Assembly (NCBI GenBank): GCA_003225175.1
Contig: QIBA01000042.1
Span: forward strand, 62,001 to 126,000
DNA: 64,000 nucleotides
Reading direction: 5' to 3'
DNA from: Acidobacteriota bacterium
GTDB lineage: Bacteria; Acidobacteriota; Terriglobia; Terriglobales; Acidobacteriaceae
Shown: positions 3,404 through 10,390 of the stretch, one piece after another
Numbering within the stretch: the stretch's first letter is position 1
Layout of the letters: each line of letters starts with the position of its first letter
Position numbers and translations under genes: made by a program
The notes under the pieces: generated by a model
The model's input: the letters and a program-made list of their open reading frames with translations, nothing else
What the model was told of the DNA's origin: nothing
Databases searched by the model: none

Positions 3404-3694
3404 TCATTCCAGTTCCACGTAACTATCGGTGAGTTCGGCGCCGTTATCGTTGGCGATACGACCAGCGGCACGTTCCACCTGCTGCATCAGCCCAGCGAGG
3501 TAGTCACGCGAGCTGGAGATGCTAACTACTCCAATCGTTGCTCGCTGCCACAGATTGGTTTCGTCAAGTTCCGCGACGGACACGTTGAAGCTGTGACGGA
3601 GCTTGTCTTTCAGGCTGCGCAGCACTTGACGTTTGTCCTTAAGAGACTGCGCGCCTTCGATGCGGATCTCGAGAGTGAGGACGGCAATCGGCAT
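3404..3694 (-). CDS. DUF503 family protein (YlxP-like)
   Basis: Small protein of 96 residues starting MPIAVLTLEIRIEGAQSLKDKR, the signature N-terminus of the DUF503/YlxP family, with the later stretch ATIGVVSISS also typical. An ATG 18 bases upstream would add six residues not seen in the family. YlxP genes usually sit next to infB and rbfA in the nusA-infB operon, and YlxP is thought to act in translation or ribosome biogenesis, so the position fits. Here it follows infB by about 120 bases, beyond a hairpin terminator, and rbfA and truB do not follow. Confidence 0.85.
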   Translation of the reverse strand: MPIAVLTLEIRIEGAQSLKDKRQVLRSLKDKLRHSFNVSVAELDETNLWQRATIGVVSISSSRDYLAGLMQQVERAAGRIANDNGAELTDSYVELE

Positions 3695-3710
3695 AATTCC
3701 GGAAATCTGC

Positions 3711-3738
3711 AAAATAAAGGCGCGACCTTCGTCGCGCC
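3711..3738 (-). terminator. Intrinsic terminator between infB and DUF503
   Basis: On the minus strand GGCGCGAC-GAAG-GTCGCGCC (8-bp stem, tetraloop) is followed directly by TTTATTTTG. It lies after the infB stop at 3813 and just before the DUF503 start at 3694, so it should end or thin the infB transcript. Confidence 0.75.
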
Positions 3739-8556: not shown

Positions 8557-9156
8557 CTAAATCTCCGGCACCAGCCGGGCGCGCTCGATGTTGGTCATCT
8601 CCAGCTCAACCGCAGGCCAGGCGCCATCGCCTTCGGTATCGAACTTCTTCTTGCCCTTCTTCTTGCCTGACTCGATCTCCAACGCGATGCGGCTCTCGTC
8701 TAACGTCCGAAGTCTGCCCTCAAAGTGCCGGTTGCCTGCCACAGGCTCCCGAGTCATGATCTTGACCTTGCTGCCCGAGAAGCGCTGAAAATCAGCGGGT
8801 TTTACTAACTTCCGGTCGAGGCCGGGCGATGAAACTTCCAATAAATACTGGCCGCCCGGGATCACATCTTCTACGTCGAGAACCGTGCCCAGTTCGCGAC
8901 TGTAATTGGCGCAATCCTCGTGAGTTACACCCGCCAATCGATCCCAATTCTCTGGCGCAGATGTCTTTTCCGCAGCCTGACTTGCGGCAGCTAGTTGCAG
9001 CTCAAGAGCACGCCTTCCTTCGGCATTCTTCTCGATGTAAATCCTGAGAACACGACCCTTGCCGCCGCCGTGAAACTCCAGATCAACAACTTCGAGTCCT
9101 GACGAAGCCGCGATTCGCTCCGCAATCGCCCGCACATGAGCTTCGTCGAATGGCAT
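8557..9156 (-). CDS. rimP: Ribosome maturation factor RimP
   Basis: 199 residues, somewhat longer than typical RimP (about 150). The N-terminal domain starts with HVRAIAERIAASSGLEVVDLEF and includes the strand RVLRIYIEK. Next comes an extra Ala/Gln-rich insertion (RALELQLAAASQAAEKTSAP). The conserved segment ...LDVEDVIPGGQYLLEVSSPGLDRKLVKPADFQRFSG is unmistakable. The C-terminal SH3-like part carries a basic GKKKGKKKF insertion. RimP is needed for 30S maturation. First gene of the operon; its start lies only about 40 bases downstream of a minus-strand hairpin terminator, so expression probably depends on read-through or an internal promoter. Confidence 0.95.
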   Translation of the reverse strand: MPFDEAHVRAIAERIAASSGLEVVDLEFHGGGKGRVLRIYIEKNAEGRRALELQLAAASQAAEKTSAPENWDRLAGVTHEDCANYSRELGTVLDVEDVIPGGQYLLEVSSPGLDRKLVKPADFQRFSGSKVKIMTREPVAGNRHFEGRLRTLDESRIALEIESGKKKGKKKFDTEGDGAWPAVELEMTNIERARLVPEI

Positions 9157-9195
9157 CGCCCGTCTTCTACCTGCAAATCACAAAAAGTTTGCCGG

Positions 9196-9220
9196 AAATA
9201 AAAAGTGGGCTATCGCCCAC
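9196..9220 (-). terminator. Intrinsic terminator upstream of rimP
   Basis: On the minus strand GTGGGC-GATA-GCCCAC is followed immediately by TTTTTATTT. A second small hairpin (GTTTG/CAAAC, 9223-9238) lies just before it. It stands between the promoter at 9355-9383 and the rimP start at 9156, so it either ends a small RNA or acts as an attenuator. Confidence 0.7.
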
Positions 9221-9348
9221 TGGTTTGCTTCGCCAAACGATTTCTCCACCACACCACGTGGATGAAGGAAGCCTAGCCACCCCCTCAGGGGCCCCGTTAT
9301 CGGACTCTTACGCTCAGCTCATAAGCCGACTCGGGGTGAACACCACAA
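9196..9348 (-). ncRNA. Candidate structured leader RNA / attenuator of rimP-nusA-infB
   Basis: A minus-strand transcript of about 150 nt would run from the promoter at 9355-9383 to the terminator at 9196. Its central part (9292-9336) folds as one long interrupted hairpin: CCCCG pairs with CGGGG, TCGG with CCGA and CTTA with TAAG, closing an 11-nt loop. It is followed by a second GGGG/CCCC-rich element (CCCCTGAGGGG) and a CCACGTGG palindrome. I compared it by eye with tRNA, TPP, SAM, cobalamin, FMN, 6S and SRP RNA signatures and found no match. Whether it is a leader for rimP or an independent small RNA cannot be decided from sequence alone. Confidence 0.4.
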
Positions 9349-9354
9349 AGTGTG

Positions 9355-9383
9355 ATGATACGCCTGATGTGGGTGATTTACAA
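9355..9383 (-). promoter_or_regulatory. Sigma-70-like promoter of the rimP leader
   Basis: Read on the minus strand: -35 TTGTAA (9383-9378), a 17-bp spacer, and -10 TATCAT (9360-9355, 5/6 match). Predicted start is near 9348. The promoter lies in the divergent gap to the CPBP protease gene. Confidence 0.5.
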
Positions 9384-9403
9384 ACCAGCCTCAGTTCACG
9401 AAA

Positions 9404-10390
9404 ATGGCTACAAACACCAGCAAAGCAGCGCCAGAAAGGCCGGAAAAACGCTTGCAAGACACTGAAAATCAATCGCTTATTTCTGACGATTCCGACCCAT
9501 CAACGTCATCCGAATCCAAATCTTCTTGGCGCAGTTCACTGTTTCTTAACGAACGAGGTTTGCGCGCCGGATGGCGCTTTGTACTCTTCCTGATCTTGCT
9601 TCGACTGGTACTCATCCCGATGGTTTTTGTGGCCGCCAAGCCGTTCCGCCATCTGCTGGAATCCAGAGTCGGGGACATATCAGACGCTTTGTTATTTCTT
9701 TGCATTCTGCTCGGCACGCTCATCATGTCCAAGGTGGAGCGTCGCTCGATGCTCTCTTACGGATTACGAGATTCTGTCGCTCTTTCGCGCTTGTTCGCAG
9801 GAAGTCTGATTGGGTTCGCGTCCTTAAGTTTGATGCTGTTGGGTTTGCGCGCGACTCATCACCTCGTGTTCGGCCCCCGCTATTTGGGCGGCTCCCAGCT
9901 TCTCATGGCTGCGCTCTTGAATCTGCTCGGATTCCTAATTGTTGCGCTGTTCGAAGAAAACGCTTTCCGCGGATACGCGCTACATACCCTGACGGAAGGA
10001 ATCGGATTCTGGCCGGCAGCAATCGTGATGGCGCTGTTGTTTGCAGCGCTGCACGTGCAGAATCCAGGCGAATCGGAGGTCGGAATAGCGGCGGTGTTTG
10101 CGTTCGGAATGATGCTTGCTTTTTCGCTTTGGCGTACTGGAACCCTGTTGTGGGCAATTGGGTTTCATTTCATGTGGGATTACTCAGAGAGTTTTCTTTA
10201 CGGCGTTCCTGATAGCGGTCTTGTTCAGCCTGAGCATCTGCTTAGCACGCATTTGTCCGGGCCAGCGTGGATCACAGGAGGAAGCGTCGGCCCTGAGGGA
10301 AGCTGGTTCATCTTCGTGCTGTTGGGGGTCGTGGCTCTGATCATTCATTTTTTGTACCCGCACAACAAGTTTCCCCAGGCCATCGGGTGA
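9404..10390 (+). CDS. CPBP-family intramembrane glutamic protease (Abi/Rce1-like)
   Basis: 328-residue polytopic membrane protein. The first 50 residues are hydrophilic, Ser/Asp/Glu-rich and presumably cytoplasmic. Membrane helices follow from about residue 58. The three conserved CPBP motifs are present: EENAFRG (about 184-190, the catalytic EExxxR pair), F-A-A-L-H (about 212-216) and H-F-M-W-D (about 253-257). Family members cleave prenylated or bacteriocin-type peptides or serve as immunity proteins; the substrate here is unknown. It is divergent from the rimP operon. The start ATG at 9404 has no clear ribosome-binding site. Confidence 0.88.
   Translation: MATNTSKAAPERPEKRLQDTENQSLISDDSDPSTSSESKSSWRSSLFLNERGLRAGWRFVLFLILLRLVLIPMVFVAAKPFRHLLESRVGDISDALLFLCILLGTLIMSKVERRSMLSYGLRDSVALSRLFAGSLIGFASLSLMLLGLRATHHLVFGPRYLGGSQLLMAALLNLLGFLIVALFEENAFRGYALHTLTEGIGFWPAAIVMALLFAALHVQNPGESEVGIAAVFAFGMMLAFSLWRTGTLLWAIGFHFMWDYSESFLYGVPDSGLVQPEHLLSTHLSGPAWITGGSVGPEGSWFIFVLLGVVALIIHFLYPHNKFPQAIG

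What the first reader, a model, noticed from the sequence alone, without database searches (positions are those of the whole stretch)
9196..9383. Self-contained promoter - structured RNA - terminator unit ahead of rimP-nusA-infB
On the minus strand a 17-bp-spaced promoter (TTGTAA/TATCAT) is followed by about 150 nt with a long multi-step hairpin (9292-9336) and a strong terminator (stem GTGGGC/GCCCAC plus TTTTT), only 40 bases before rimP. This is the architecture of an attenuator or riboregulator. The nusA operon is known to be autoregulated through leader termination in other bacteria, but this sequence does not resemble any leader I know. It could also be a stand-alone small RNA.
Basis: partly seen in the sequence, partly recalled or inferred. 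Interest (0 to 1): 0.62.

Follow-up and report, generated by a model that had tools for sequence, protein, structure and literature searches.

The report
rimP-leader attenuator with extra RNA domain
Just before the rimP-nusA-infB genes this bacterium has a promoter followed by an RNA stop signal of a kind already described in many bacteria, which probably limits how much of these ribosome and transcription factors is made; what is unusual is a conserved RNA segment in front of it that so far shows up only in this genus.

Summary
The reported unit is real: promoter TTGTAA-17-TATCAT, a conserved 5' segment, and an intrinsic terminator 39 bases before rimP. It does resemble a known leader: the terminator is the rimP-leader attenuator of Naville and Gautheret 2010 (PMC2965389), with its GGGc..gCCC stem. 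The hairpin precedes rimP at 89 of 90 loci read from the window's class and at 53 of 60 from other classes of the phylum. A few lineages show compensated stem changes. The terminator lies between promoter and rimP, so it must be read through; an attenuator follows. NusA feedback is the likeliest control, by precedent in B. subtilis and E. coli, untested here. The part I found undescribed is a ~113-nt 5' domain, present in the six held genomes of the genus and without a convincing match in 244 other genomes of the family. Its identity is 74%, against 41% at rimP four-fold sites, so it is under selection; its helices are kept in all six, but its folding energy is ordinary, its fold is ambiguous and its function unknown. 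Sister genera carry a possible antiterminator helix.

The parts
9378..9383 (-). -35 box TTGTAA (in TTGTAAATC)
   Evidence: identical in the six genus genomes
9355..9360 (-). -10 box TATCAT (in GCGTATCATC)
   Evidence: identical in the six; start site expected near 9346-9351 (inference)
9242..9354 (-). genus-specific 5' domain of the leader RNA
   Evidence: model R2 matches the six genomes it was built from (E <= 3.3e-23); best other match E 9.8e-4 in 244 other family genomes; 0.74 identity vs 0.41 at rimP four-fold sites
9292..9336 (-). helix P1 CCCCG/CGGGG with variable inner arm
   Evidence: paired in 6 of 6, one G-C to A-U change; excluded by alternative helix P0 (9338-9333 with 9283-9278), which RNAalifold prefers
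9281..9291 (-). helix P2 CCCC-TGA-GGGG
   Evidence: paired in 6 of 6, loop varies; also excluded by P0
9244..9267 (-). helix P3 CUUCAUC/GGUGGAG
   Evidence: paired in 6 of 6; one pair is U-G, U-A and C-G in different genomes
9223..9238 (-). helix P4 GUUUG-GCGAAG-CAAAC just before the terminator
   Evidence: 0.96 identity, paired in 6 of 6; alternative P5: GUUUGGC with GCUAGGC 9277-9271
9196..9221 (-). rimP-leader intrinsic terminator AGUGGGC-GAUA-GCCCACU plus U tract
8557..9156 (-). rimP
   Evidence: PF02576 and PF17384
6944..8527 (-). nusA
   Evidence: PF08529, PF13184
3813..6803 (-). infB (IF-2)
   Evidence: PF11987, PF04760

Best explanation
It is the transcription attenuator of the rimP-nusA-infB operon, of the known rimP-leader kind. 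RNA polymerase starts near 9350 (predicted) and transcribes a ~113-nt 5' domain (conservation shown). It then meets an intrinsic terminator 39 nt before rimP (shown by sequence and comparison). Part of the polymerases stop and part read through into rimP-nusA-infB (inferred, since no promoter-like site was found between terminator and rimP). The stop fraction is most likely set by NusA, the product of the second gene, which stimulates the hairpin-dependent stop and so limits its own operon (inferred from B. subtilis and E. coli). The genus-specific 5' domain probably tunes this, as a protein-binding or pausing element or by alternative folding next to the terminator (speculative).
For: Hairpin before rimP at 89 of 90 loci of the window's class, 85 with the strict GTGGGC/GCCCAC stem. 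Of 60 loci from other classes (39 missed by model R1, 21 matched), a terminator at 52 by an independent finder vs mean 3.0 in five rounds of block shuffling, and at G255 by R1 and pattern: 53 of 60. The 30 best R1 loci all precede rimP: 29 by tblastn, L114 by coordinates. Compensated stems such as GCGGCC/GGCCGC, GTGAGG/CCTCAC, GTGGGT/ACCCAC, GCGGGC/GCCCGC, in one or two loci each. Strong -10 boxes, found in 174 of 252, cluster 20-40 nt before the hairpin; flat in shuffles. No promoter-like site between terminator and rimP in the window. Published NusA autoregulation by leader termination: B. subtilis (PMC12288461, passages), E. coli (PMC6511841, passages).
Against: No RNA or expression data: termination, read-through and NusA action are untested in this phylum. 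The 5' domain is not more stable than shuffles (z from -0.06 to -1.81 in the six). Its covariation is slight: 2 two-sided changes, reached by 23 of 500 shuffles, and further pair types reached by 107 of 500. Two exclusive folds fit it. No hairpin was seen at 7 of 60 other-class loci and 1 of 90 class loci. R1 matched only 65 of 198 phylum genomes. A promoter overlapping the terminator is not excluded; the gap from hairpin to rimP is under 45 nt in only 27 of 56 loci by approximate homology-derived starts.
Confidence: 0.6

Rival explanations
1. Attenuator as above, but the controlling factor is not NusA: cold-shock (CspA-type) proteins melt the terminator, or RimP, IF2 or a 30S intermediate binds the conserved hairpin.
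For: Csp proteins are reported to antiterminate the E. coli metY-rpsO operon that holds nusA and infB (PMC12562117, one introduction passage). The stem sequence itself is conserved, as if recognised; Naville and Gautheret argue for a protein that reads it and mention RimP as a possibility.
Against: No direct data; NusA feedback is reported at this operon in B. subtilis and E. coli.
Confidence: 0.2
2. The 5' domain is a true switch (alternative folds P0/P5 against P1/P2/P4, pairing with the terminator arm, or ligand binding) that decides terminator formation, with NusA secondary.
For: Constraint on the 5' domain; mutually exclusive pairings kept in all six; the invariant GUUCAC near the start can pair 6 of 6 with the terminator arm GUGGGC in all six, and so can a second, varying hexamer. 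In sister genera a helix ACUG-N-UGUGU/ACACA-N-CAGU would take the foot of the terminator, with both states within 0.7 kcal/mol in 14 of 19.
Against: In the six genus genomes the GUUCAC-paired state is 6.8-10.4 kcal/mol worse than the terminator state, and duplexes of the first 26 nt with the pre-terminator segment are no better than shuffled (z +0.46 to +1.94). Outside the genus the domain was not convincingly found.
Confidence: 0.12
3. A stand-alone trans-acting small RNA of about 155 nt made from the same promoter.
For: Self-contained promoter and terminator.
Against: Hairpin goes with rimP in every checkable locus of the pattern scan and the 30 best R1 loci; short-leader lineages would release only about 40 nt (inferred).
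Confidence: 0.04
4. A constitutive, unregulated partial terminator that merely sets operon level.
For: Nothing here shows regulation.
Against: Conservation of the stem sequence exceeds what a plain terminator needs.
Confidence: 0.04

Closest known systems
General rimP-leader attenuator (Naville and Gautheret 2010, PMC2965389; passages and one part of section 3 seen, supplements not seen)
   Same: Same gene, same place, G-rich 5' arm and C-rich 3' arm (GGGc..gCCC), T stretch, 4-130 nt before rimP
   Different: Here mostly a longer conserved stem (GTGGGC/GCCCAC) and, in this genus, a conserved ~113-nt 5' domain; that paper reports no larger conserved element in the general leader. Whether its supplementary lists hold acidobacterial members was not seen
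Gammaproteobacterial rimP leader, Rfam RF01770 (E. coli)
   Same: Same operon; last hairpin CUGGGC..GCCC-UUUUUUU directly before rimP
   Different: RF01770 has a second hairpin with a U run upstream; no match here at gathering score, at E <= 5 for 9100-9450 or at E <= 1 in the whole genome
B. subtilis nusA leader with NusA-stimulated termination (Mondal et al. 2016, known here only through a review passage)
   Same: Proposed working principle
   Different: NusA dependence not tested here

Membership tests
general rimP-leader attenuator | lies directly upstream of rimP-nusA-infB | tested here: met
general rimP-leader attenuator | terminator stem with GGGc..gCCC and T stretch | tested here: met
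general rimP-leader attenuator | 4-130 nt between terminator and gene start | tested here: met
   39 nt from the end of the T tract (9196) to the ATG (9156)
general rimP-leader attenuator | motif specific to rimP, not found at other terminators | tested here: met
With the looser model R1 a few weak second matches away from rimP exist, e.g. in G217 and G143
general rimP-leader attenuator | regulated read-through | not testable with these tools
   needs RNA data
Rfam RF01770 gammaproteobacterial rimP leader | score at or above 47 bits | tested here: not met
   E. coli control scores 102 bits
Rfam RF01770 gammaproteobacterial rimP leader | second upstream terminator with CCCg..cGGG stem and T run | tested here: not met
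   P1 and P2 have C-rich 5' and G-rich 3' arms, but no T run follows
NusA-autoregulated leader | NusA-dependent termination in vivo or in vitro | not testable with these tools
   precedent only
any curated Rfam family | match at gathering score | tested here: not met
   0 matches in the window; below threshold only RF02420 at E 2.2 and 3.3, 16-17 bits against a cut-off of 50

The most novel reading that the evidence does not exclude
The genus-specific 5' domain is a new regulatory RNA (a protein- or ligand-sensing element with exclusive folds) that was placed in front of the ancestral rimP-leader terminator and now controls read-through into the rimP-nusA-infB operon, in place of the simpler antiterminator helix possible in sister genera.
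Probability: 0.25. Interest if true: 0.65.

Novelty: new variant of a known kind. Interest (0 to 1): 0.42.

Why it matters
The rimP-leader was called the most ubiquitous attenuator in 2010, yet in the papers seen here its control is reported only as NusA action in B. subtilis and E. coli. The Acidobacteriota offer very short natural versions (-10 box a median 26 nt, sometimes 10-14 nt, before the hairpin), in which an upstream antiterminator is hardly possible and a trans-acting factor should be needed; long versions with a conserved 5' domain; and an apparently bistable version in sister genera. Comparing them would show what reads the conserved stem and how an attenuator gains an accessory domain.

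Tried and rejected
Small ORF in the leader: a GTG frame follows the conserved GTGTTCACC, but by eye on the alignment its length and stop are not conserved; not claimed. tRNA ancestry (E. coli has metY there): ARAGORN finds none in the window; among 95 loci given to it only E. coli, three deltaproteobacterial contigs and one antisense tRNA-Arg had a gene; rejected for this leader. Antiterminator in the window's own leader: possible pairings exist but are unfavourable; the best duplex in several of the six set the CCC of P1 against the GGG of the terminator, no better than shuffled. Covariation for the sister-genus helix: both strands nearly invariant (of 51 correctly oriented distinct sequences 41 pair 9 of 10 positions, 7 pair 8, 3 pair 7); suggestive, not proven. 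In one search, 15 further rows were read in the wrong orientation because the stem is palindromic; I dropped them and do not use that call's per-position tallies. One search had the same fault and was redone. Folding-energy support for the 5' domain: not found. Of the 94 of 100 relatives (own genome included) with RimP, 5 (G095-G099) were not fetched. Energies were computed for 19 of the 23 sequences of alignment A3.

Full report
WHAT IS THERE. On the minus strand, TTGTAA (9383-9378), 17 nt, TATCAT (9360-9355) precede a leader that ends in the intrinsic terminator AGTGGGC-GATA-GCCCACT-TTTTATTT (9221-9196), 39 nt before rimP; rimP, nusA and infB follow in line. The neighbouring gene (9404-10390, Rce1-like) is divergent. 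Two further weak promoter-like matches on the minus strand lie inside divergent genes (9731 and 10893); transcripts from them would also meet the terminator. None lies between the terminator and rimP.

CHANCE. The promoter match alone is weak (4 found, mean 1.8 in shuffles). The 188 nt fold at z = -2.96, but without promoter and terminator the transcribed 5' part is ordinary (z = -0.77; -0.06 to -1.81 in the six genus members). The bare stem occurs at 3 places in the genome against 4 for the reversed control. The evidence that matters is comparative.

THE TERMINATOR IN THE PHYLUM. In the DNA search of 100 genomes (own included) 57 match at E <= 0.01; outside the genus only the 3' part matches. 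RimP was found in 94 of 100. I read the DNA before rimP at 90 loci from 89 of these genomes: 89 have the hairpin, 85 with the strict GTGGGC/GCCCAC stem and 4 with changed ends; 1 has none. From other classes of the phylum I read 60 loci, 39 missed and 21 matched by model R1: 52 have a terminator by an independent finder, against a mean of 3.0 in five rounds of block shuffling. G255 has one with a longer loop, and G285 has the rimP-type hairpin although the finder picked another there; 7 of 60 show none. R1 itself matched 65 of 198 phylum genomes at E <= 0.01 under strict filters; the 30 best loci all precede rimP, 29 by tblastn and L114 by coordinates. Some weaker R1 matches, such as second ones in G217 and G143, do not lie at the rimP place. 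Most stems are invariant (231 of 258, a set biased to the motif because it includes the pattern-scan loci), but single lineages carry compensated changes, so pairing is selected as well as sequence.

BEYOND THE PHYLUM. 115 have RimP downstream (L240 only at E 0.1, on 162 nt); in the other 4 the locus ends 47-179 nt from the motif start. By record title 17 of the 119 are not acidobacterial: Nitrospira and relatives, Deltaproteobacteria incl. Smithella, Alphaproteobacteria, Proteobacteria, Solirubrobacterales; they are metagenome bins, so labels may err. E. coli has CTGGGC..GCCC-TTTTTTT right before rimP, inside its RF01770 match.

GEOMETRY. A strong -10 box was found in 174 of 252 sequences and clusters 20-40 nt before the hairpin (flat in shuffles); without the loci of the window's family the median is 26 nt, with 10-14 nt in some. 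With a start about 7 nt after the -10 box (general knowledge), the hairpin begins near +5 to +30, leaving little or no room for an upstream antiterminator in the shortest leaders. Between hairpin and rimP the gap is under 45 nt in 27 of 56 loci by approximate homology-derived starts, in 38 of 56 to the first in-frame start codon, which leaves little room for another promoter unless it overlaps the terminator. So the terminator must, in all likelihood, be read through.

THE GENUS-SPECIFIC 5' DOMAIN. Model R2 (9354-9242), built from the six held genus genomes, finds those six (E <= 3.3e-23); in the other 244 genomes drawn from the family, 7 have weak matches, best E 9.8e-4. Mean pairwise identity among the six: -35/-10 region 0.83, spacer between the boxes 0.53, 5' domain 0.74, P4 0.96, terminator 1.00, spacer to ATG 0.59, 70 nt upstream 0.45, rimP four-fold sites 0.41. 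The domain is therefore under selection. Helices P1-P4 plus the terminator are paired in 100% of cells, against 39-62% in slid controls, with 2 two-sided changes; 17 of 500 shuffles reach the covariation score and 23 of 500 the two-sided count. One of the two is a lone pair split off P2 by the alignment, the other is the P1 G-C to A-U change. RNAalifold prefers instead P0 (CACCCC/GGGGUG) and P5 (GCUAGGC/GUUUGGC), also always paired but with one-sided changes only. The two folds exclude each other, and I cannot tell which is used. The invariant GUUCAC could also pair with the terminator arm GUGGGC in all six, but at a cost of 6.8-10.4 kcal/mol.

SISTER GENERA. There the start-proximal ACUG-N-UGUGU can pair with ACACA-N-CAGU, whose last three bases are the foot of the terminator; terminator and antiterminator states are within 0.7 kcal/mol in 14 of 19. 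Both strands are nearly invariant, so this lacks covariation proof.

COMPARISON WITH WHAT IS KNOWN. Naville and Gautheret 2010 (PMC2965389; passages, one part of section 3; supplements not seen) describe the rimP-leader as the most ubiquitous attenuator, with a GGGc..gCCC stem specific to rimP, no visible antiterminator in the general form, and NusA as the best candidate factor. A 2025 review (PMC12288461, passages) states that B. subtilis NusA is autoregulated by NusA-stimulated termination in its leader. PMC6511841 (passages) reports t1 and t2 upstream of E. coli rimP and higher operon transcripts when termination by NusA is reduced. PMC12562117 (one passage) reports Csp antitermination at that operon. 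The window element meets the sequence features of the general rimP-leader and fails RF01770. Searches whose listings showed nothing on this 5' domain: (open-licence PMC papers only; one search lists PMC2965389 alone).

VERDICT. A real attenuator of a known kind, with a conserved genus-specific 5' domain that these searches did not find described and whose action is unknown.

Noticed in passing
sister-genus leaders such as L031:1473-1539, L012, L029: Possible antiterminator helix ACUG-N-UGUGU/ACACA-N-CAGU overlapping the terminator foot, nearly isoenergetic with the terminator state.
   Followed up: partly
L036, L037, L038, L041, L048 (upstream of rimP): Another subgroup of the family has a purine-rich stretch ending in ATGA immediately before the terminator stem, resembling a ribosome site with a start codon on the hairpin; in some it can pair with a start-proximal UUUGUCC stretch.
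   Followed up: partly
L176:6351-6426, L199:6785-6860, L241:6414-6489: Three contigs labelled Deltaproteobacteria have a tRNA-Gly(CCC) gene 27-82 nt before the rimP-leader hairpin, recalling metY before rimP in E. coli.
   Followed up: no
L040 (G023:C40, 3.6 kb contig): Genome G023 holds a second rimP locus with its own leader hairpin; duplication or contamination not resolved.
   Followed up: no
window 9281-9336: P1 and P2 have C-rich 5' arms and G-rich 3' arms, inverse to the terminator, like the extra upstream hairpin described for gammaproteobacterial rimP leaders, but without a T run.
   Followed up: partly
L366, L367: Two other GTGGGC/GCCCAC inverted repeats in the genome, not matched by model R1.
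   Followed up: no
window 3404-3712: The ORF after infB is a DUF503 protein.
   Followed up: no
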